From assembly GCF_002278035.1 (NCBI RefSeq), contig NZ_CP022604.1, positions 1,488,001 to 1,552,000 of the forward strand: DNA of 64,000 bases, given 5' to 3'. Each line of letters starts with the position of its first letter. The stretch's first letter is position 1. The notes beneath the pieces were generated by a model. It had not been told where the DNA came from, ran no database searches, and worked only from the letters and a program-made list of their open reading frames with translations. Made by a program: the position numbers and the translations under genes. This DNA comes from Ochrobactrum quorumnocens. GTDB lineage: Bacteria > Pseudomonadota > Alphaproteobacteria > Rhizobiales > Rhizobiaceae. Positions 2,941 through 58,928 of this stretch are shown here, one piece after another.

Positions 2941-3884
2941 ACGCGCTTCCCCGTGCGGGATAATTCTTTTTTACGCTCCGCCAAAAACTTCTGGCGTTGC
3001 TCCATGCCACTCGCAGTCAATTGAACGGTAACGCGATCATCCAGACGAAGATCGACAGATGCGATATCACGCGACAGAAGTTGCTTTTCGCTATCCAGAC
3101 GCTCAACCTCGGCGAGAGCCTTCATCGGCTCATCTTCCGGCAGCATAATGCGAACGCCATTTTCGAGCAGAATATCCCAACGGCGGTCAGCGACGCGGAT
3201 ATAGGCACGAACCTTGCCAGCCAGCCCCGGATAGGCCGCAACCTCGTCTACGAAGCCCTTAACGCGCTTTTCGGCACCCTCACCCACGACAAGCGGGAGA
3301 GCGTTGTAACGACCCGGACGAAATGGAACGATGGTATCGCCGGCAGAATCAATCAAAGAAAGCTCCTGGCCGTTCTGCCAGACGGCGAATGCCTTGCGCT
3401 CTTCGAGAGAAACAAGCAGCGTACCCGGATAAACCTTACGCACTTCTGCGCCTTCAACCCAAGGCAGCTTTGCGATAGCCTGACGCGCCTGTTCGGCACT
3501 CAAACCGACCAGTGAGGTTTCACCATCCAGCTCAAGCTGACCCAGAATATCGATGTCAGAAGTTTCGCTGTTGCCAACGACCTTTACGTCTTCAATCGCA
3601 AAGCCAAATGTCGAAGCCGTTGCCTTGACCATGTTTTCGGAATGGCCGCCAAGGACCATGCCATAAATACCAGTTGCTCCGAGAAAGCCGAGCATGCCAA
3701 TCGTGCCAGCATAGCGTGGAACGTTGATATTGCCCTGAAACAGACGGACAGCAAAGCGGAATGGCTTCCGCAGAAGGCGCGGCAGAACAAAGGCTGCACC
3801 CGATGCATCCCGCATCGCGCCCGAACGCCTATATTCCTGAGATCTGCCGTTTACCGCAAACAAGACGCGTCCTCCACCATCCAA
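2937..3884 (-). CDS. ftsQ: Cell division protein FtsQ
   Basis: FtsQ is a bitopic inner-membrane protein of the divisome that links early and late division proteins through FtsL/FtsB. The 315-residue product has a basic cytoplasmic N-terminus, one membrane segment at about residues 62-82 ([18 protein letters not shown]), a POTRA domain (about 95-170) and the FtsQ domain. It lies between ddlB (34-base overlap with the chosen start) and ftsA (4-base overlap), the usual order. Upstream of 3884 the ribosome binding site is weak. An in-frame ATG at 3815 would shorten the cytoplasmic tail by 23 residues and is a real alternative. Confidence 0.93.
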
Positions 3885-4798
3885 CTCAACAATTCACCAA
3901 AAGAGATACCTGCCGCCTTCGCGATATCAGGCACGAGCGATGTAGGAGTCATTCCTGGCTGGGTGTTAATTTCCAGCCAAATAACTTCGCCTTCTTCGGA
4001 AAAACGATCATCGAAACGGAAGTCTGATCTGCTTACGCCCCGACACCCGATTGCCCGATGCGCCGTAAGGGCCATTGTTTGTATTTTTTGGTAAATATTT
4101 GGTAAAATTTTTGCCGGACATGCGTGAGTTGATGCGCCAGCCACATATTTTGAATCATAATCGTAGAACTGATGACCCACTGGAATGATCTCGCAGACAT
4201 CCATCGCGCGATCACCCATCACAGCGCAGGTCAATTCACGACCGGCAATATAACCCTCGACCATGACCTCATCGCCATAGCGCCAGTCAGTAGAACCAAT
4301 AATCTGAGGCGGATGCGACTGGTCTTCCTTGACGATAACGACACCGAAGCTTGAGCCTTCACGCACAGGTTTGACGACGTATGGCGGCTCCATCGGATGC
4401 TCTGAACCAATATCAAAACGGTTCATCAAACGTGATGGCGCAATAGCCACACCGGCAGCAGCAGCAACCTTCTTGGCGCGATCTTTGTCCATGGCAAGCG
4501 CCGAAGCGAGCACGCCGGAATGCGTGTAAGGGATCTGAAGATATTCAAGGATACCCTGAATAGCGCCATCCTCACCAAAAGGGCCATGCAACGCATTGAA
4601 CGCCACATCAGGCCTCAGCTCTGCAAGAACGCTGGCAACATTGCGGTCGACATCGATACGCGTGACGCGGTAGCCGCACTCTTCAAGCGTTGTCGCACAG
4701 GCAGCACCGGAGGATAGGCTGACAGGACGCTCAGAAGAGAAACCGCCCATCAAAACGGCAACATGCTTTACAGCCTTCTGTCCAGCCACGTTAGTCAT
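3851..4798 (-). CDS. ddlB: D-alanine--D-alanine ligase
   Basis: Joins two D-alanines with ATP to give the dipeptide that MurF adds to the peptidoglycan precursor. The 315-residue product is an ATP-grasp enzyme: the N-terminal [12 protein letters not shown] motif, HGPFGEDG (about residues 70-77), the central [11 protein letters not shown] grasp segment and the C-terminal [15 protein letters not shown] metal/substrate motif are all present. It is the first gene of the ddlB-ftsQ-ftsA-ftsZ block, separated from murB by about 245 bases with a terminator. The start is uncertain: GAGGGG directly abuts the ATG at 4798, whereas its spacing to an in-frame GTG at 4789 (nine bases) is more normal. Confidence 0.94.
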
Positions 4799-52135: not shown

Positions 52136-52900
52136 ATGAATTACATATTTGAACTATCCGTTTATCTTTCTTTTGTGACTTTCGCGGTCCTCGGCGTTGC
52201 CGTCTACTTCGTTGGTCGCTTTGCGCTTCACATTCTGTCCCATCATGCCAATCATGATATTCTGTCCATCCCGATTGGCGCTTTCATCAGCACCATAGCG
52301 ACGGCATGGGCACTTTCATTGGGGTTTGTTGCCGCCGATATTTGGACGGCCAACTCAAAAGCTGATCAGGCAACGAGCGAAGAACGATCATCCATTTCGC
52401 GGCTGATTGGAGCCGCAAGCCCCGACATTCTAAATGCCCCAGTACTTGTGGCATCTCTTTCTGAATACCGCACTGCAGTCGTCAAAGACGAGTGGCTTGG
52501 AAACAGCAACATCGCGCCTGTGCATTCCGTTGAAATTGCATTGCAGAATATACGCCGCGAGATCGTGAAGCTTGCGAAGACTGACATTCCGTCGCCGATA
52601 ATATCGCAGCTCGTGCATGACTTTGACGAATTGCAGGACGCCCGCAATACGCGCCTCTCTGTCGGCTCGACATCAGTTGACATGTATAAATGGTATCTGC
52701 TGTTTTCGCTGACGATCCTGACCATCATCACCATCGCAGCCACCCATGCAGACAGGGTAAGTGCTGGCATCAAAGCCATGGTAATCTATTCGATCACGGC
52801 AGCATTTTGTCTTTGGATTCTCGCAATCCATGCCAATCCATATCAGGGAATAGAGCGGCTCGAACCGTCGCTTCTATTTACAAACCAGAAATCGAGCTGA
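52136..52900 (+). CDS. Bestrophin-like DUF4239 membrane protein
   Basis: A 254-residue protein with two N-terminal hydrophobic segments, a central helical domain and two C-terminal segments (about residues 187-205 and 212-230), the layout of DUF4239 (bestrophin-like) proteins. Seen: IPIGAFISTIATAWALSLGFVAADIW and a coiled DFDELQDARNTRLSVG stretch. Function unknown, possibly an ion channel by analogy. The next gene starts nine bases after its stop. Confidence 0.7.
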   Translation: MNYIFELSVYLSFVTFAVLGVAVYFVGRFALHILSHHANHDILSIPIGAFISTIATAWALSLGFVAADIWTANSKADQATSEERSSISRLIGAASPDILNAPVLVASLSEYRTAVVKDEWLGNSNIAPVHSVEIALQNIRREIVKLAKTDIPSPIISQLVHDFDELQDARNTRLSVGSTSVDMYKWYLLFSLTILTIITIAATHADRVSAGIKAMVIYSITAAFCLWILAIHANPYQGIERLEPSLLFTNQKSS

Positions 52901-52908
52901 TCTTTCGA

Positions 52909-53472
52909 ATGAAATCTCTTTCGATAGCCATCACAGCGTTGACACTCTTCGTAGCCTTACCAAAGGCCGAGGCCCAGACTTTCCGGGTCTGTCACGGCTA
53001 CGAGTGCTACTACAAGACCAAGGTAACGCTATCCGATCAGGATCTACGCCGCATACAGAATCTCATGCGGCAAGGCGCGCAGTCTCCTGCCGCCGAACGC
53101 AAAGCTCTTCGAGCAGCAGTCGCTTTATTTGAACAGCGCAGTACAGCCGCCATCGGCGTTCGTGACAAGCCTCGCATGCAGTTTGGCAAGGCCCGCATCA
53201 AAGGGCAGATGGACTGCATTGATGAATCGACCAATACGGACAATTTCATCCGTTATCTGGATTCTCGCGGCTGGCTGAAACATCATGCTCCTGTGCGCAA
53301 AAGCGCACGCGGCAGCTTTTTCGATGGGCGCTATCCTCATTGGACAGCGGTTATCCAAGCCAAGGATAGTGAGCGCTGGGCGGTTGACTCCTGGTACGAA
53401 GCAGGCGGCGGTCCGCCCGACATTATGCCGCTGGCAGATTGGAAGCGCCGCGGCTATGGCGGCGAAAGATAA
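52909..53472 (+). CDS. Exported protein with a possible Cys-His-Asp catalytic triad
   Basis: A 187-residue protein with a signal peptide (cut after AEA, about residue 22), a Cys-containing RVCHGYECYYK segment, a helical stretch (about 41-80) and a C-terminal half with MDCIDESTNT (Cys103), RYPHWTAVIQ (His144) and ERWAVDSWY (Asp160). Order and spacing of Cys, His and Asp resemble transglutaminase-like or papain-like hydrolases; this is a hypothesis. No named family is recognised. It is probably co-transcribed with the DUF4239 gene. Confidence 0.6.
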   Translation: MKSLSIAITALTLFVALPKAEAQTFRVCHGYECYYKTKVTLSDQDLRRIQNLMRQGAQSPAAERKALRAAVALFEQRSTAAIGVRDKPRMQFGKARIKGQMDCIDESTNTDNFIRYLDSRGWLKHHAPVRKSARGSFFDGRYPHWTAVIQAKDSERWAVDSWYEAGGGPPDIMPLADWKRRGYGGER

Positions 53473-53567
53473 ATACAGATTGAGTGCAGTAGCAGCTTCA
53501 CACCAAGCCGTAAAACGAAGCGCTCATGATGATGAATGTGTAGGCCGTTTCACCTAGGGGGTTACCA

Positions 53568-54635
53568 ATGGCTATTCTGAAGAAGTCCTTTGCAGCCGCG
53601 TGCACGAGCGCACTTGTCGCATTCAGCATGTTTGCTGCACCCGTCGCTGAAGCTTGCACACGGGTGGTTTATCTTGGAGCCAATGATCAGGTGATAACGG
53701 CGCGTTCCATGGATTGGAAGGTCGATGTCGGCACCAATCTCTGGATTTTCCCGCGCGGCATGGACCGCAATGGCGAGGCTGGGCCCAATTCCATCAAGTG
53801 GACGTCCAAATATGGCAGCGTGATTTCCTCCGGCTACGATATTTCGACAACCGATGGGATGAACGAAGCTGGCCTCGTTGCCAATGTGCTGTGGCTGGTC
53901 GAATCCGAATATCCGAAATATGATGGAACCGGCCCTGGCCTTTCCATTGCAGCCTGGGCACAATATGTACTCGATAACTTTGCCACCGTTGACGACGCGG
54001 TCAAGGAACTCAGCACCAATCCATTCACGATCGTGACAGACAATGTGCCCGGCCAGGACCGGCTCGCGACCCTTCACCTGTCAATATCGGATGCGTCAGG
54101 CGATAGTGCGATCTTCGAATATATTGACGGAAAGCAGGTCATCCATCACAGCCGTGAATATCAGGTAATGACCAATTCCCCGACATTCGACGAACAGCTT
54201 GCGCTGCACTCTTATTGGTCGCAGATCGGTGGAACGGTCATGTTACCGGGTACGAACCGGGCATCTGATCGCTTCACACGTGCCGCCTTCTATGTGAATG
54301 CCGTACCAAAATCGGAAGAACCTGTTGAAGCGCTTGCTAGCGTTTTCGGCGTCATCCGTAACGCATCGGTTCCGTTCGGCATCACAACACCAGACGAACC
54401 GAACATCTCGTCGACACGCTGGCGCACTGTTTCCGATCAAAAGCGTAAGCTCTATTTCTTTGAGTCGGCTCTGACGCCTAACGTTTTCTGGGTCGATCTG
54501 AACACGGTAGACTTCTCTGCCGATAAGGGAAAAGTACAGAAGCTCGACCTTGGTCCCGATCAGCGAAATATTTTTTCCGGTGTTGTGAACAAGGATTTCA
54601 AGGACGCAAAACCTTTCAAATTCCTCGGGCTTTAA
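53568..54635 (+). CDS. Choloylglycine hydrolase family protein (exported Ntn hydrolase), copy 2
   Basis: A 355-residue paralogue of the gene at 49538. Signal peptide ending AEA, nucleophile Cys30 at the mature N-terminus (CTRVVYLG), ARSMDW, DGMNEAGL and MTNSPTFDEQ with the catalytic Asn are all present. Sequence identity to copy 1 is moderate by eye, so these are not a recent duplication. It may act as a penicillin V acylase, bile salt hydrolase or acyl-homoserine lactone acylase; sequence does not decide. AGGGGGT precedes the ATG. Confidence 0.87.
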   Translation: MAILKKSFAAACTSALVAFSMFAAPVAEACTRVVYLGANDQVITARSMDWKVDVGTNLWIFPRGMDRNGEAGPNSIKWTSKYGSVISSGYDISTTDGMNEAGLVANVLWLVESEYPKYDGTGPGLSIAAWAQYVLDNFATVDDAVKELSTNPFTIVTDNVPGQDRLATLHLSISDASGDSAIFEYIDGKQVIHHSREYQVMTNSPTFDEQLALHSYWSQIGGTVMLPGTNRASDRFTRAAFYVNAVPKSEEPVEALASVFGVIRNASVPFGITTPDEPNISSTRWRTVSDQKRKLYFFESALTPNVFWVDLNTVDFSADKGKVQKLDLGPDQRNIFSGVVNKDFKDAKPFKFLGL

Positions 54636-54760
54636 GCGCCATTCAGCAAAGCCTAAAACCGGCCTAGACCATTAAGAGCACTGATTCTGGCCAAAAAATC
54701 TGAAACCAATCGGCATCCCGCGCGTTAACTAGTCACAACAACCAGAACGGAGGAAATCCA

Positions 54761-54970
54761 ATGGACTGGAATCGCGTAGAAGGCAATTGGAAGCAGGCTA
54801 AGGGTAAGGTCAAGGAACAGTGGGGTAAGCTCACCGATGATGATCTCGACCAGATTAATGGCCGCCGCGAGCAGTTGGAAGGCAAGATTCAGGAACGTTA
54901 CGGCATCGCTAAGGACCGTGTAAAATCGGATATCGATGACTGGTACAAACACCAGCAGTGGCTTTCCTAA
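54761..54970 (+). CDS. CsbD family stress protein
   Basis: A 69-residue, charged, helical protein of the CsbD family: MDWNRVEGNWKQAKGKVKEQWGKLTDDDL and the ERYGIAKDRVKSDIDDWYK tail. Relatives are induced by general stress in many bacteria (sigma B in Bacillus); molecular role unknown. GGAGG precedes the ATG and a terminator follows, so it is a single-gene unit. Confidence 0.92.
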   Translation: MDWNRVEGNWKQAKGKVKEQWGKLTDDDLDQINGRREQLEGKIQERYGIAKDRVKSDIDDWYKHQQWLS

Positions 54971-54999
54971 CAAAAGCCCCGTAATCAGACCGACAGAAT

Positions 55000-55031
55000 G
55001 AAGCCCTGCCCTATGGCGGGGCTTCATTTTT
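55000..55031 (+). terminator. Rho-independent terminator of the CsbD gene
   Basis: Stem GAAGCCCTGCC/GGCGGGGCTTC (one G-T pair) with loop CTAT, followed by ATTTTT. Confidence 0.85.
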
Positions 55032-55046
55032 CCATGTTTGTTACGC

Positions 55047-55541
55047 TCAGCAGCGATCAACGCGCTGAAGCGATGCAGACAATCCCATCAGCGAAAATGT
55101 GTAACGGGTTTGCGTGCCACGTGCCGATGTGGCTTGCACATTGACAGTACGGCCAGACCGCATGGCGCTGACGATGCGTGCCTCATCACCGACGTTCTGC
55201 GCCCATGCCCGGTTTCCTTCGCTGAAGAAGGGAAACTGCGCTCCGTCAACCATTACCTTTACGGTGCTATCCGCTTTCAGATCATACCCCATCACAAGCT
55301 GCGGGCTATAGCTCGCACCCGACTTGGAAAGAATAATGAAATTATCGCCATGCCGAACGCCTGCCGGAAGAAAACTCGACGGCACGGTCAAAGCATAGCA
55401 TTTGTTGCCGGGCAGCTGGGTGTTTTGATAAACGCCCCAATCCCTGAACTCACCAATATGACTCGTTTTAGCCGAAGCCGCGAGAGAACTCGCCACCAAC
55501 CCTGCAAGCGCCAACGCAACAGTGGTTGTCTTTTTAGTCAT
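55047..55541 (-). CDS. Invasion-associated locus B (IalB) family protein
   Basis: A 164-residue periplasmic protein with a signal peptide (about residues 1-25, ending AASA) and an IalB-type domain: FRDWGVYQN, KCYALTVPSSFLP, GDNFIILSKSGASYSPQLVMGYDLK, and the paired terminal Cys. IalB was named for erythrocyte invasion in Bartonella but homologues occur in free-living relatives with unknown role. The start at ATG 55541 has GGAGG nine bases upstream. It is the last chromosomal-type gene before the prophage. Confidence 0.82.
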   Translation of the reverse strand: MTKKTTTVALALAGLVASSLAASAKTSHIGEFRDWGVYQNTQLPGNKCYALTVPSSFLPAGVRHGDNFIILSKSGASYSPQLVMGYDLKADSTVKVMVDGAQFPFFSEGNRAWAQNVGDEARIVSAMRSGRTVNVQATSARGTQTRYTFSLMGLSASLQRVDRC

Positions 55542-56066
55542 TGCCTGAAACCTCCATAATGTCACCAATCACGTGGCATAAAAAATTGTTTCATTGCGTT
55601 ACTATTTCCTTAACAGACTCCTAAAAACTTGTTGAACAGGAAAAAAGGTCGCGGCTGAATAAACTTCGCGCATGAAAAAGCGCGTCCGCTCGACACTTCA
55701 ACGACAAATCGGACGAGCTGTGATCAACACTATTCAAATATTCTGAAACCGGGAATGCAGAGGTCGCAAACGCTGTTTCTGCGTGTTTTATCTTCACTAA
55801 GCACGTCAAGGACAACGGCTTGATAGCCATCCATACCGACAGCAACGACAGAACAAACTTCTGGAAGAAATGGTGGGCCCGGAGGTTCTACGGAAAACGA
55901 GTTAAATCAACTACTTGCAGAAAAGTGGGACAGAAATGCCCCATATGATTCGTTTATGTTTTTTAAATCGCCTGCCCCACAAATCTAAGATTTTATCCAC
56001 GCGTTATCCAATGGATATCAACCGTATTTCCACAGCCGTAAAAACGCGGATTGACTCTTTTTCCAA
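55542..56066. other. Chromosome/prophage junction region without a supported gene
   Basis: More than 500 AT-richer bases. A 58-codon minus-strand reading without stops (55733-55906, ending CIPGFRIFE) and an equally long plus-strand reading look coding-like but lack good starts. They may be remnants of a gene broken by the prophage. An attachment site probably lies here but cannot be named without the other end. Confidence 0.4.
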
Positions 56067-56070
56067 ATGA

Positions 56071-56085
56071 GAACATTTTAGGAAC
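56071..56085 (+). promoter_or_regulatory. LexA (SOS) box upstream of the phage polymerase gene
   Basis: GAAC-ATTTTAG-GAAC is an exact match to the alphaproteobacterial LexA site GAAC-N7-GAAC (GTTC-N7-GTTC). It lies 82 bases before the polymerase start. A 23-base block around it (56066-56088) is repeated exactly at 58211-58233. A degenerate GTTC-N7-TTTC occurs at 56142-56156, close to the start. Confidence 0.75.
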
Positions 56086-56113
56086 ATATCCACATTGAGC
56101 GGAATATGTTCCT
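56080..56113. promoter_or_regulatory. Inverted repeat overlapping the SOS box
   Basis: AGGAACATAT (56080-56089) and ATATGTTCCT (56104-56113) are perfect 10-base arms with a 14-base spacer. The left arm includes the second half of the LexA box. It could be a second operator, for example of a phage repressor. Confidence 0.5.
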
Positions 56114-56167
56114 GTGCACCCCTGTGCGCGAGGCAGGTTTCGTTCGCCCTGTTTTCTGGAGTTTGTA

Positions 56168-57442
56168 ATGCGTCTGCCGGAGGCGATTGAACGGCTATAC
56201 CTCGATTTCGACGGCTTTTTCGCATCAGTCGAACAGCAGTGCGACAAGCGCCTGCGCGGCAGGCCGATAGGTGTGGTTCCATTTGAAGGCACAAACCGCA
56301 CAGCAGTCATTGCATGCTCGAAAGAAGCTAAGGCGCAAGGCGTCAAGAACGTGATGCCGATCAAGGACGCATTGCGGGTGTGTCCGGATCTTGTACTTGT
56401 TCCGCAAAAGCCAGACCTTTACCGCCGAGCACATAACGCCCTGCTCTGCGAGATCGAAACGGTGATCGCCATCGACACCGCAAAGAGCATCGATGAACTG
56501 ACATGCGTTCTCGATGACAGCGGAAAGCGAGATCCTGAATTGCTCGCAGCAAGGATAAAAGCTGCGATTGCTGACAACATCGGCCCATACATCACCAGTT
56601 CAATCGGCTTTGCCGCCAACCGCCAGCTGGCGAAGATCGCCTGCAAGGCTGGCAAAGAAGAAAGCAAGCGACACGGAAGCTATGGCAACGGCCTTGCGAT
56701 ATGGCGGCCCGCCTCGATGCCCGCGCCATTGCTTAAGGTCGAGCTGGAGGATATTCCCGGCATCGGGTCGAGCATGGCAAAGCGGCTTTATCGAAATCGG
56801 GTTTACAGCACCGAGCAGCTCTATGCGCTTCAACCGAAACACATGCGCAAAATCTGGAACAGCGTGAATGGCGAGCGGCTTTGGTATGCGCTGCACGGAT
56901 ATGACATCCAAGCGCCAGAGCAGCAGCGCGGCATGTTCGGCCACGGTCGAGTGCTACCGCCCGAAGCTCGCAAGATTGACGGCGCATATGAGATATCGCG
57001 CCTATTGCTCACGAAAGCTGCCCGTCGCCTGCGCAGAGAGAACTATTACGCCGGGGGCTTATGGCTCTGGCTGTCGATCCGTGACGGCTCATGGTTTGGC
57101 AAGCATCACCTTTCTGTCGTCAATGATGATCAAGCCATTTTATCCGGCCTGCATGCACTCTGGCAGAACGTCAGAAAAGACTTTCCGAAAGGCGTCGAGA
57201 TCTTTCGGGTTGGCGTCACACTTTACGACCTGTCACCAGCCGACGAGCGGCAGATTGATTTGCTCGATAATGACGACGAGCTGCGCCAGAAATGGGAACG
57301 CGCCAACGGGGCAGTTGATAAACTCAACTCGAAATATTCCGGCACGATTGTCAGCATGGGTGAATGGAAACCACCGGCAGGCGGTCATGTCGGTGGCAAG
57401 ATCAGCTACACGCGGATCCCTAGCGCCGAGGATTTCTGGTAA
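56168..57442 (+). CDS. Prophage Y-family DNA polymerase (UmuC/DinB-like)
   Basis: Predicted translesion polymerase. The 424-residue product has LYLDFDGFFASVEQ with catalytic Asp13, SIDE at 107-110 with Asp109/Glu110, the thumb-side SIGFAANRQLAKIACKAGKEESKRHG, a helix-hairpin-helix (DIPGIGSSMAKRL, about 195-207), a little-finger domain, and QIDLL near residue 362 that resembles the beta-clamp binding pentapeptide. All catalytic acids are present, so it should be active, unlike ImuB. GGAG is six bases before the ATG at 56168; a reading from 56114 has none. It starts a tightly packed operon behind an SOS box. Confidence 0.88.
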   Translation: MRLPEAIERLYLDFDGFFASVEQQCDKRLRGRPIGVVPFEGTNRTAVIACSKEAKAQGVKNVMPIKDALRVCPDLVLVPQKPDLYRRAHNALLCEIETVIAIDTAKSIDELTCVLDDSGKRDPELLAARIKAAIADNIGPYITSSIGFAANRQLAKIACKAGKEESKRHGSYGNGLAIWRPASMPAPLLKVELEDIPGIGSSMAKRLYRNRVYSTEQLYALQPKHMRKIWNSVNGERLWYALHGYDIQAPEQQRGMFGHGRVLPPEARKIDGAYEISRLLLTKAARRLRRENYYAGGLWLWLSIRDGSWFGKHHLSVVNDDQAILSGLHALWQNVRKDFPKGVEIFRVGVTLYDLSPADERQIDLLDNDDELRQKWERANGAVDKLNSKYSGTIVSMGEWKPPAGGHVGGKISYTRIPSAEDFW

Positions 57443-57696
57443 TGGGAAACTGGAAAACAACAGTCAAGGTTGGCGATCTGGCAGACGATCAGAAGCTCGA
57501 ATTGATATGCCGCAAATGTAACCGCCTCGCCTATACGGATCGAACAATGCTCTGCCAAGAAAAAGACCGCTCGCAACTTTATCTAGATGAGATCGAGAAA
57601 AAGGCCGTATGCAAACGCCGGGGCTGCAATGGACCGATGCGCCTATCCATGGTGCGCCTTAAAGAAATGAGCGGCTTTGTGGGTGGTTTAGCATGA
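57442..57696 (+). CDS. Small zinc-ribbon protein of the phage polymerase operon
   Basis: An 84-residue protein of unknown function. Cys23-x2-Cys26 and Cys57-x4-Cys62, with an extra Cys38, suggest a zinc ribbon. It starts on the polymerase stop (TAATG), so the two are translationally coupled, and overlaps the next gene by four bases. A role as DNA-binding or polymerase accessory factor is inference from this linkage alone. Confidence 0.7.
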   Translation: MGNWKTTVKVGDLADDQKLELICRKCNRLAYTDRTMLCQEKDRSQLYLDEIEKKAVCKRRGCNGPMRLSMVRLKEMSGFVGGLA

Positions 57697-57875
57697 GCGG
57701 TTATGGTGGTGATAACGGTCGCGTGTCCAAGCCCGGAAAGCTTTTTGAGCATTGGTGTGATGCTGAAGGCTGCAAGGCATGGGGATCCTTTGGATATAAA
57801 ACCAAGTATGGGCAGCTCTGGTTTTGCCGCGCCCATAAACAAGAAGGCGAAGAGGCACTGGCTGGACGCCGGTAA
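57693..57875 (+). CDS. Small CCCH zinc-finger-like phage protein
   Basis: A 60-residue protein. Cys22-x4-Cys27 and Cys45-x2-His48 make a probable zinc site around an aromatic core (WGSFGYKTKYGQLWF). It overlaps the upstream gene by ATGA. Function unknown. With its neighbour it makes two zinc-binding miniproteins behind a polymerase. Confidence 0.65.
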   Translation: MSGYGGDNGRVSKPGKLFEHWCDAEGCKAWGSFGYKTKYGQLWFCRAHKQEGEEALAGRR

Positions 57876-57911
57876 ATTCCGCACTACCTCCTTTGAAAAT
57901 AGGAGGACGAC

Positions 57912-58193
57912 ATGCTGGGACCAAAACAACCGGGCGATTATCCAGACCGCGACATTGATTGTCAGGAAGCCGTTGCGCAGGGAATTGCAGATCTAATCGA
58001 GCAAGCAACGCTCTCCGGCAGCTCAGAGCAAGAAGCCGCCGCCGCTATAGCTGACACAGGAGTACCCGGCATACGGGACCTTATCGACGATGCGGTCGCG
58101 GCGGGATGGTCAGCAGAAGAAACGGCGAGCGCCATAAAGATCGTTTCCGCTGGAATGTATCGTGGTTTCACCGGCACCGAACCGGATGAATAG
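57912..58193 (+). CDS. Unknown small acidic phage protein
   Basis: A 93-residue, acidic (about 19 Asp/Glu), Ala-rich helical protein with two similar halves around VPGIRDLIDDAVAAGWSAEE and GIADLIEQATLSGSSEQEA, each a short helix-turn unit. AGGAGG is eight bases before the ATG. It is 36 bases past the previous gene and likely the last of the first SOS unit. Confidence 0.6.
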   Translation: MLGPKQPGDYPDRDIDCQEAVAQGIADLIEQATLSGSSEQEAAAAIADTGVPGIRDLIDDAVAAGWSAEETASAIKIVSAGMYRGFTGTEPDE

Positions 58194-58216
58194 CGATTGA
58201 CTTCTCTTGAAAATGA

Positions 58217-58231
58217 GAACATTTTAGGAAC
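58217..58231 (+). promoter_or_regulatory. Second LexA (SOS) box, identical to the first
   Basis: GAAC-ATTTTAG-GAAC again, inside an exact 23-base copy (58211-58233) of the block at 56066-56088. It lies 29 bases before the next ATG, close enough to overlap a promoter. Confidence 0.7.
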
Positions 58232-58260
58232 ATCCGTTTAAGAGGAATATAAAGAGATCC

Positions 58261-58395
58261 ATGGCAATCAAGTTTACAAGCTCACCTGACCGTCAACCGG
58301 AACCCAAAGCAGGGAAAGGAAAAGCTTCTAAAAAGAAATCTGCAACCCCGTCGGAAGACAATGCGGAGCATGATCTCAACACCGAGGGAAAGTGA
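58261..58395 (+). CDS. 44-residue Lys-rich phage miniprotein
   Basis: A short frame right behind the second SOS box, with AAAGAG before the ATG. The product is very basic in its middle (GKGKASKKK) and acidic at the end (EDNAEHDLNTEGK), probably disordered. Function unknown. It is too short for the usual gene cut-off. The next gene starts five bases after its stop. Confidence 0.55.
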   Translation: MAIKFTSSPDRQPEPKAGKGKASKKKSATPSEDNAEHDLNTEGK

Positions 58396-58400
58396 ACTGA

Positions 58401-58640
58401 ATGGCAGCTGCTCGACTGATCGTGGTTGCGGCTTTTGATAAGAACGATGACGGCGAACTGATTCCAGCATTTGATCCCATAGCATTTGAAACAGAAGGGC
58501 GCGCGATGAAGACCGCGCTTGCGCTGGAAAGCAGACATGCAGGGGTTGTTGCATGGAGCCGAGAGGCCGATCCGGACATTGGTGAATATGGACCTCCAGC
58601 CATTATTTTCCAATACGGCGAAATTCCGGATATGGAATGA
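58401..58640 (+). CDS. Unknown small phage protein
   Basis: A 79-residue protein with the pattern LIVVAAFDKNDDGELIPAFDP then ALALESRHAGVVAWSREADPDIGEYGPPAIIFQYG, a mixed alpha/beta fold by eye. GAGGGAAAG lies before the ATG. It occurs in the second SOS unit and ends in a bidirectional terminator. No family recognised. Confidence 0.6.
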   Translation: MAAARLIVVAAFDKNDDGELIPAFDPIAFETEGRAMKTALALESRHAGVVAWSREADPDIGEYGPPAIIFQYGEIPDME

Positions 58641-58659
58641 GCCGGATATTCAAACAACA

Positions 58660-58683
58660 AAAGCCCCGCCTAAGCGGGGCTTT
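58660..58683. terminator. Bidirectional terminator between convergent phage operons
   Basis: A 10-base-pair stem AAAGCCCCGC/GCGGGGCTTT with loop CTAA. It lies between the rightward SOS genes and the leftward late genes. Confidence 0.8.
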
Positions 58684-58685
58684 CG

Positions 58686-58928
58686 TTATTTCTGAAACCA
58701 AGCGATCAGTTTCACAGTGTTTTCATAGAGAGACACAACTCCGATAAGTATCGCCAGTACGCCCAAAATAACCCACCTCATGAAACGTCCAATGGTGCGC
58801 ATTGATCTGATCAGATCCAACCCGTGTTTCATCAGGTCGATATCTTCTTCTCTAAGCTGTGAGAGAAACTCGCGGGTTTCTTCGGGTAATTCGATCAGCT
58901 TGCCAGCTGTGGTAGCTTCCGGATCCAT
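58686..58928 (-). CDS. Small single-pass phage membrane protein
   Basis: An 80-residue protein: acidic helical cytoplasmic part (EETREFLSQLREEDIDLMKHGLDLI) followed by one membrane segment (about residues 53-72) and a short tail. The ATG at 58928 has GAGG eight bases upstream. It is the last gene of the late operon, next to the spanins; a lysis-accessory role (second holin or antiholin) is possible but unproven. Confidence 0.6.
   Translation of the reverse strand: MDPEATTAGKLIELPEETREFLSQLREEDIDLMKHGLDLIRSMRTIGRFMRWVILGVLAILIGVVSLYENTVKLIAWFQK

What the first reader, a model, noticed from the sequence alone, without database searches (positions are those of the whole stretch)
56066..58193. 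SOS-boxed phage operon pairing a Y-family polymerase with two zinc-binding miniproteins
An apparently intact Y-family polymerase (Asp13, SIDE, clamp-like QIDLL) is translationally coupled to an 84-residue zinc ribbon and a 60-residue CCCH protein, followed by an acidic 93-residue protein. The operon is behind an exact GAAC-N7-GAAC box. Phage-borne mutasomes are known (UmuDC-like), but there is no UmuD or ImuA here. The two zinc miniproteins may be new accessory subunits for damage-induced phage mutagenesis.
Basis: partly seen in the sequence, partly recalled or inferred. Interest (0 to 1): 0.8.

Follow-up and report, generated by a model that had tools for sequence, protein, structure and literature searches.

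The report
Zinc-ribbon partner of SOS mutagenic polymerase
Viruses and plasmids of alphaproteobacteria carry an error-prone DNA polymerase gene that looks switched on by DNA damage, and nearly always a second small gene beside it for an unstudied, probably zinc-binding protein that is likely its dedicated helper subunit.

Summary
A Y-family polymerase with an intact active site (56168-57442) overlaps an 84-aa four-cysteine protein ("ZnR", 57442-57696), then a 60-aa CCCH protein and a 93-aa acidic one, behind a LexA-type box. The operon lies about 0.2 kb inside one end of a 43-kb prophage in a tRNA-Met gene. ZnR is a dedicated polymerase partner: starting from the polymerase, 44 of 45 full-length copies examined (55% identity or more) have it close behind; starting from ZnR, 72 of 75 genome loci have the polymerase, or a piece, just before. 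None of 11 more distant polymerases examined has it, and one tree branch parts the two sets. 57 of 59 carry a LexA-type box upstream (0.39 expected). The CCCH and acidic proteins are not polymerase-specific, and the pair also lives on plasmids. Best reading: a mutasome in which ZnR takes the small-subunit place of UmuD' or YolD, with RecA docking through a RecA-N-terminus-like segment. Contact, zinc, RecA docking and mutagenesis are inferred, not shown. The 2026 survey of polymerase modules names no such subunit in the parts I read. New variant of a known kind.

The parts
55869..55885 (+). Left attachment-site core of the prophage; the same 17 bases recur at window-scale position 99079 (G000:C3:1587079), at the 3' end of a tRNA-Met and just after a phage-integrase gene
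56051..56085 (+). Promoter-like TTGACT (56051) with a LexA-type direct repeat GAACATTTTAGGAAC (56071-56085) lying where a -10 element would be
   Evidence: box also upstream of relatives
56168..57442 (+). Y-family DNA polymerase, 424 aa; catalytic D13, D109, E110; clamp-like QIDLL; RecA-N-terminus-like segment about 374-398; conserved C-terminal tail 405-424
57442..57696 (+). ZnR, 84-aa four-cysteine (C23, C26, C57, C62) small protein; dedicated polymerase partner
57693..57875 (+). 60-aa CCCH protein (resembles the EsV-1-7 motif, just under the Pfam cut-off); travels in the cassette but is not polymerase-specific
56023..57886 (+). Exchangeable cassette: box, polymerase, ZnR and CCCH, 99.57% identical over 1864 bases to a second copy in the same genome whose flanks do not match
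57912..58193 (+). 93-aa acidic protein (phrog_37258, phrog_37486), outside the near-identical cassette, found also without the polymerase
58197..58231 (+). Second promoter-like TTGACT plus identical LexA-type box (58217-58231)
58262..58640 (+). Two small ORFs (44 and 79 aa) behind the second box; no match in Pfam or PHROGs at E up to 1, and only a chance-level NCBIfam match for the second

Best explanation
The module is a DNA-damage-switched translesion mutasome of mobile elements. LexA holds the operon down; damage releases it, and polymerase and ZnR are made together by coupled translation (inferred from box position and gene overlap). ZnR, probably folded round zinc held by four cysteines, binds the polymerase, most likely through the conserved and otherwise disordered tails of the two proteins; the polymerase's RecA-N-terminus-like segment lets it dock on RecA and its clamp-like motif on the sliding clamp. 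ZnR thereby does what UmuD' does for UmuC and what YolD/YqjX is thought to do for UvrX/YqjW: it makes the polymerase competent or aims it at lesions. The element gains replication past damage during induction. Shown here: gene pairing, its confinement to one group of polymerases, intact catalytic residues, boxes, conservation, cassette exchange. Inferred: binding, zinc, RecA and clamp contact, mutagenesis.
For: Pairing from both sides: 44 of 45 polymerase-first loci and 72 of 75 ZnR-first genome loci; 25 of 25 full-length copies at 60% identity or more in the 60 nearest genomes. 0 of 11 distant polymerases examined has ZnR within 900 nt, and the two sets lie on the two sides of one branch, 100/96, in 100% of bootstrap trees. 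The two frames overlap in 48 of 63. LexA-type box upstream of 57 of 59, 0.39 expected; the host's own recA has the same kind of box. Catalytic triad 55 of 55; Y-family fold. Tail 405-424 mean identity 0.91 against 0.76 overall, yet 409-424 has pLDDT under 50 alone; the ZnR tail (F79, G81, G82, A84 in 68 of 68 distinct) is likewise under 50 alone. RecA-like segment: the best-scoring place is the same C-terminal register in 43 of 55 distinct polymerases. A conserved tail behind a RecA-NT motif is the published mark of polymerases with a small subunit (PMC6511836, passages). The cassette moved as a unit between two otherwise unlike loci.
Against: No direct evidence of contact; no co-fold was obtained (abandoned). 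The RecA-NT match is weak in statistics: hhalign probability 0.12%, E 0.47; single-sequence scores were reached by 0 to 26 of 100 shuffles, 11 of 100 for the window's own; in 12 of 55 the best place is elsewhere; and no DUF4113 hit was listed (up to E 1). ZnR-less relatives share part of the tail, and some share the RecA-like segment (6 of 12), so neither is ZnR-specific. Intact ZnR genes without polymerase exist: L236, L237 and viral L177, L178, near a DNA methylase or a Com-like gene. One polymerase, L135, lacks ZnR. The one protein that covers both parts, P0143, looks like a frameshift, not a true fusion. The ZnR model is only moderately confident (pLDDT 75.7, pTM 0.58) and its fold matches are weak. 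Of 20 recA loci used as a control for the box, 7, all from other families, showed none.
Confidence: 0.55

Rival explanations
1. ZnR is a nucleic-acid-binding regulator, like the Mu zinc protein Com (which activates translation of mom), that controls expression of the polymerase or of neighbouring genes and never joins the enzyme.
For: Small zinc proteins of mobile elements can be RNA binders: Com activates mom translation (PMC6483171, start of abstract in a search listing). Two viral ZnR genes sit without polymerase near a D12 methylase (L177) or a Com-like gene (L178). Weak sub-threshold matches of ZnR proteins are to zinc-ribbon families such as Trm112p and TFIIS.
Against: ZnR itself lists no match to the Com family at E up to 1; it lies downstream of the polymerase gene, which is not the Com-mom order (recalled); the polymerase is nearly always its upstream neighbour across Alphaproteobacteria while the genes behind it change.
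Confidence: 0.2
2. ZnR restrains or removes the polymerase: its conserved C-terminal GF-V-GGLA tail is a protease or chaperone signal and ZnR limits the mutagenic burst.
For: The last residues are almost invariant and end at the same column in 15 of 15 aligned (68 distinct) and are disordered in the model. Likeness to C-terminal degradation signals is recalled, from no call.
Against: No family or structure match supports it; a degradation signal would not by itself explain the conserved W4, D12, L13, E20 and the four cysteines.
Confidence: 0.12
3. ZnR is an independent SOS-induced accessory gene (for example anti-defence or DNA-modification related) that merely shares the operon and is inherited with it.
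For: The cassette moves as a block, so neighbours can be inherited together; orphan intact ZnR genes exist.
Against: Passengers change between relatives, as CCCH and the acidic gene do, whereas ZnR stays with the polymerase through deep divergence, both on phages and on plasmids.
Confidence: 0.13

Closest known systems
UvrX-YolD / YqjW-YqjX (putative Gram-positive mutasome; phage SPbeta yolD-yolE)
   Same: SOS-linked Y-family polymerase with a RecA-NT motif and conserved tail, and a small protein from the same operon, UvrX being prophage-encoded (PMC6511836, passages; SPbeta locus)
   Different: Partner is a YolD protein with an SH3-like core (per the paper), encoded upstream in SPbeta; ZnR has four cysteines, is encoded downstream and lists no YolD match
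Pol V (UmuD'2-UmuC-RecA)
   Same: Active Y-family polymerase plus small LexA-controlled subunit; a umuD-polymerase pair is annotated on a Cronobacter phage
   Different: Partner UmuD is a self-cleaving LexA-like protein (recalled); this polymerase scores 53.4 bits against a UmuC cut-off of 431
PolY-SRAP and PolY-ImuB-C modules named in the 2026 survey (PMC12926913)
   Same: Y-family polymerase with a dedicated partner and probable RecA docking
   Different: Other partner proteins; on a Maritalea plasmid an SRAP gene does stand beside a polymerase-ZnR pair
Mu Com zinc protein (PF10122)
   Same: Small zinc-ribbon protein of mobile elements
   Different: No match to ZnR listed at E up to 1

Membership tests
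Y-family DNA polymerase | IMS catalytic domain and carboxylate triad | tested here: met
   PF00817 E 5.3e-34; D13, D109, E110 in 55 of 55; Foldseek best hits are Y-family polymerases
UmuC of Pol V | UmuC model cut-off and UmuD partner gene | tested here: not met
   53.4 bits against 431; no UmuD-like match for the cassette's small proteins
YqjW/UvrX-YolD module | YolD-family partner | tested here: not met
   No YolD match listed for any of the small proteins at E up to 1
ImuB of ImuA-ImuB-DnaE2 | Catalytically dead Y-family protein | tested here: not met
   Active-site residues intact. The host has a separate divergent Y-family frame (C3:78462) that I take for ImuB; that name is recalled, not tested
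PolY with RecA-NT motif | RecA-N-terminus-like helix-strand after the clamp motif | tested here: inconclusive
   Same C-terminal register best in 43 of 55, but hhalign probability 0.12% and no DUF4113 match listed; helix 371-389 predicted, no strand behind it
LexA regulon of Alphaproteobacteria | GTTC/GAAC-N7 direct repeat at the promoter | tested here: met
   57 of 59 against 0.39 expected; host recA (L191) carries the same kind, though 7 of 20 recA loci of other families showed none; motif per PMC3323433 passages
LexA regulon of Alphaproteobacteria | LexA binding and induction by damage | not testable with these tools
   needs an experiment
Multisubunit mutasome with small subunit | Physical complex and effect on translesion synthesis | not testable with these tools
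   only single-chain models available; tethered attempt abandoned
Zinc-ribbon fold (ZnR) | Two Cys pairs and zinc-ribbon fold | tested here: inconclusive
Mu Com | PF10122 match | tested here: not met
   none listed at E up to 1
EsV-1-7 repeat (CCCH protein) | PF19114 cut-off | tested here: inconclusive
   24.5 bits against 25

The most novel reading that the evidence does not exclude
ZnR founds a further class of mutasome subunit: a zinc ribbon, unrelated to UmuD' and YolD, that binds the tail of a RecA-docking Y-family polymerase and is required for damage-induced mutagenesis by phages and plasmids of Alphaproteobacteria.
Probability: 0.45. Interest if true: 0.78.

Novelty: new variant of a known kind. 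Interest (0 to 1): 0.62.

Why it matters
Pol V needs UmuD', and Gram-positive PolYs have YolD; the polymerases described here pass in public records as 'ImpB', 'UmuC' or 'DNA polymerase-4' with a 'hypothetical protein' beside them. A dedicated, SOS-controlled zinc partner would show that the small-subunit role was filled again by an unrelated protein, give a handle on what such subunits do in general, and explain how mobile elements of many environmental and some animal- or plant-associated bacteria bring their own means of replicating past damage, and perhaps of mutating.

Tried and rejected
Natural fusion: a query made of a polymerase and ZnR read as one chain found, among the 120 listed of 1716 hits (only the 7998 candidates sharing most words were scored), one protein covering both (P0143). 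Its sequence shows the conserved polymerase tail replaced by unrelated residues just before ZnR, like the other frame over the tail seen upstream of ZnR. I take it for a frameshift or assembly error and do not count it.

Complex modelling: single chains only are offered. A tethered alignment was built, but its consensus and invariant columns show that the aligner laid the ZnR-only rows on the polymerase, so it was not folded; the second fold went to the polymerase alone.

ZnR in isolated phages: no tblastn hit in 50,697 records at E 0.01, and no DNA match of 56000-58700. Co-evolution of distances was not tested: adjacent genes co-inherit trivially. A YolD-like N-terminal arm in ZnR was considered by eye only and is not claimed.

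Literature: I saw no paper on this pair in the listings. Subscription journals are mostly not held and supplements were not readable, so the supplementary figures of the 2026 survey were not seen. What I saw: PMC12926913 abstract, sections 22 and 24 whole, passages elsewhere; PMC6511836 abstract and passages; PMC3323433 passages; PMC6483171 search listing only.
Full report
WHAT IS THERE. The reading frames, overlaps and box are as described. The polymerase has Pfam IMS and IMS_C domains, aligns with solved Y-family polymerases so that Asp13, Asp109 and Glu110 fall on their catalytic positions, and its model matches Y-family structures. ZnR has no family match above any curated cut-off. The LexA-type box recurs identically at 58214 before two more small ORFs; both copies lie 20 bases behind the start of a TTGACT, where a repressor would cover a -10 element (inference).

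WHERE IT SITS. The window is G000:C3:1488001-1552000. The closest named loci are Brucella/Ochrobactrum, so the host is taken to be a Brucellaceae member. A 17-base repeat at 55869 recurs at 99079 (window-scale numbering), beside a phage-integrase gene and overlapping the 3' end of a tRNA-Met gene. The prophage therefore spans about 55.87-99.1 kb, with lysozyme, tail, baseplate-hub and tape-measure genes right of the operon, and the operon's box lies about 0.2 kb inside its left end. The genome holds a second copy: 56023-57886 is 99.57% identical over 1864 bases to C3:1027k, in flanks that do not match, apart from part of the acidic gene at 69%. Box, polymerase, ZnR and CCCH have thus moved as one block between two otherwise unlike loci; a viral-contig collection calls the second one a provirus too (L148).

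IS ZnR TIED TO THE POLYMERASE? From the polymerase side: in the 60 nearest genomes the search at E 1e-30 listed 31 copies. 25 are full-length and at least 60% identical, and all 25 have ZnR at once behind; two truncated copies (L106, L108) and four distant ones do not. An order-wide search (397 genomes, 46 with a match) added 20 fetched loci of 55% identity or more; three further second copies and most of the distant matches listed there were not examined. Together 44 of 45 polymerase-first loci have ZnR within 900 nt (the 47 non-viral rows less L180 and L181, which were found through ZnR). The exception is L135. In three (L136-L138) a longer spacer puts ZnR 245-577 nt away, yet it stays open. 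Adding the 16 viral and two class-level loci found through ZnR itself, which are biased, gives 62 of 63; of the 11 full-length polymerases under 50% identity that I examined, none has ZnR.

From the ZnR side: a scan of one genome for each of 84,980 species gave 75 loci; 72 have the polymerase or a piece directly upstream on the same strand. L236 and L237 carry intact ZnR without it, and L289 a remnant; among the 72, L285 is cut by the contig end and L290 keeps only a scrap. Two of the 72 are contigs labelled Bacillus subtilis SK6B4 that look like contamination. Of 32 viral-contig loci, 22 went into the script: 18 have the polymerase or a piece, L166 and L175 have too little upstream (L166 shows the polymerase's last residues), and L177 and L178 have room but no polymerase. 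The other ten begin at ZnR itself, so they say nothing. In the polymerase tree (88 rows: 75 with ZnR, 11 without, L135 and one SPbeta row in no group) a single branch parts the two sets, 100/96, in 100% of bootstraps; long branches make inner placements unsure.

DISTRIBUTION. Hosts with informative names are Alphaproteobacteria: Brucellaceae, Rhizobiaceae, Phyllobacteriaceae, Pleomorphomonadaceae, Rhodovibrionaceae, Sphingomonadales, Bartonella tamiae, Methylocapsa and others. In a class-wide sample 2 of 384 other genomes have ZnR. A phylum sample was not obtained. Of 35 plasmid records with ZnR, many from Acinetobacter, Aeromonas and Enterobacteriaceae, I opened six: four alphaproteobacterial plasmids have the intact pair and a box. 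Two resistance plasmids, of Aeromonas and Salmonella, have a ZnR gene or ZnR pieces behind mere polymerase-tail pieces, near tet(Y) or tet(C). The other 29 were not opened.

REGULATION. 57 of 59 genome-contig polymerases have a GAAC-N7-GAAC or GTTC-N7-GTTC repeat within 200 nt upstream, 0.39 expected from shuffles; the host's recA (L191) has GAACAATAATAGAAC. In that control 12 of 20 recA loci have such a box before the open frame, one (L190) only just inside it, and 7, all of other families, none. GTTC-N7-GTTC is the alphaproteobacterial LexA motif (PMC3323433, passages).

HOW IT MAY WORK. Two papers define the frame. Many PolYs carry a RecA-N-terminus-like motif, and those with a small subunit (UmuD', YolD) have a conserved tail behind it (PMC6511836, abstract and passages). 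[quoted passage not shown] its only 'zinc' is in the reference list, so its main text names no zinc-ribbon type. Here the tail 405-424 has mean identity 0.91 against 0.76 overall, is mostly modelled as disordered and follows a segment whose best match to the host RecA N-terminus falls in one register in 43 of 55 distinct polymerases. That match is weak by itself (hhalign probability 0.12%; 0 to 26 of 100 shuffles reach the single-sequence scores), and ZnR-less relatives share part of the tail and, in 6 of 12, the segment. ZnR is most conserved at W4, D12, L13, E20, four cysteines and the last residues F79, G81, G82, A84 (68 distinct); its tail too is disordered alone. Conserved yet disordered ends on two closely paired proteins suggest docking (inference). 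I therefore favour a polymerase-ZnR-RecA mutasome at 0.55.

THE OTHER SMALL PROTEINS. CCCH occurs in 22 of 60 genomes. Of 30 opened loci, 9 lie behind polymerase and ZnR, most of the rest behind another small open frame. The acidic gene is likewise independent. I drop both from the proposed complex.

VERDICT. Real, conserved and, as far as my searches reach, undescribed; a new variant of the polymerase-plus-small-subunit mutasome kind. Function is inferred.

Noticed in passing
L292 (Aeromonas pAb5S9) 3980-4252; L293 (Salmonella) around 3450-4240: A ZnR gene or pieces with polymerase-tail pieces sit near tet(Y) or tet(C) on gammaproteobacterial resistance plasmids, suggesting these blocks passed through an alphaproteobacterial element carrying the pair. 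Described only.
   Followed up: partly
L177 7998-8243; L178 7998-8240: Divergent intact ZnR genes without polymerase on viral contigs, near a D12 adenine methylase (L177) and a Com-like zinc protein (L178; PF10122, below cut-off).
   Followed up: partly
window 58197-58640: Second, identical LexA-type box before two unknown small ORFs (44 and 79 aa): the prophage seems to have two SOS operons side by side.
   Followed up: no
L082, upstream of the second polymerase copy: The second copy has what reads like a divergent adenine methylase gene upstream of the same cassette (read by eye).
   Followed up: no
L136, L137, L138 between polymerase and ZnR: Repeat-like DNA of varying length between polymerase and ZnR, leaving both open.
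   Followed up: no
L236 and L237, about 224-514 bases behind the ZnR start: Another small cysteine-rich protein follows the orphan ZnR genes in Pseudochrobactrum; the L236 one has no family match at cut-off.
   Followed up: partly
L296 863-1606 (Maritalea plasmid): An SRAP gene stands divergently beside a polymerase-ZnR pair; SRAP-like proteins are themselves named as PolY partners in the 2026 survey.
   Followed up: partly
P0146, P0155, P0174, L294: These polymerases are named 'type VI secretion protein ImpB' in public records, which looks like a carried-over misannotation of ImpB (UmuC-like).
   Followed up: no
L239, L240: Contigs titled Bacillus subtilis SK6B4 carry Pseudochrobactrum-like polymerase-ZnR loci: probable contamination.
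   Followed up: no
window 52136-55568: Host genes left of the prophage include bestrophin-like, choloylglycine-hydrolase-like, CsbD-like and IalB-like proteins.
   Followed up: no
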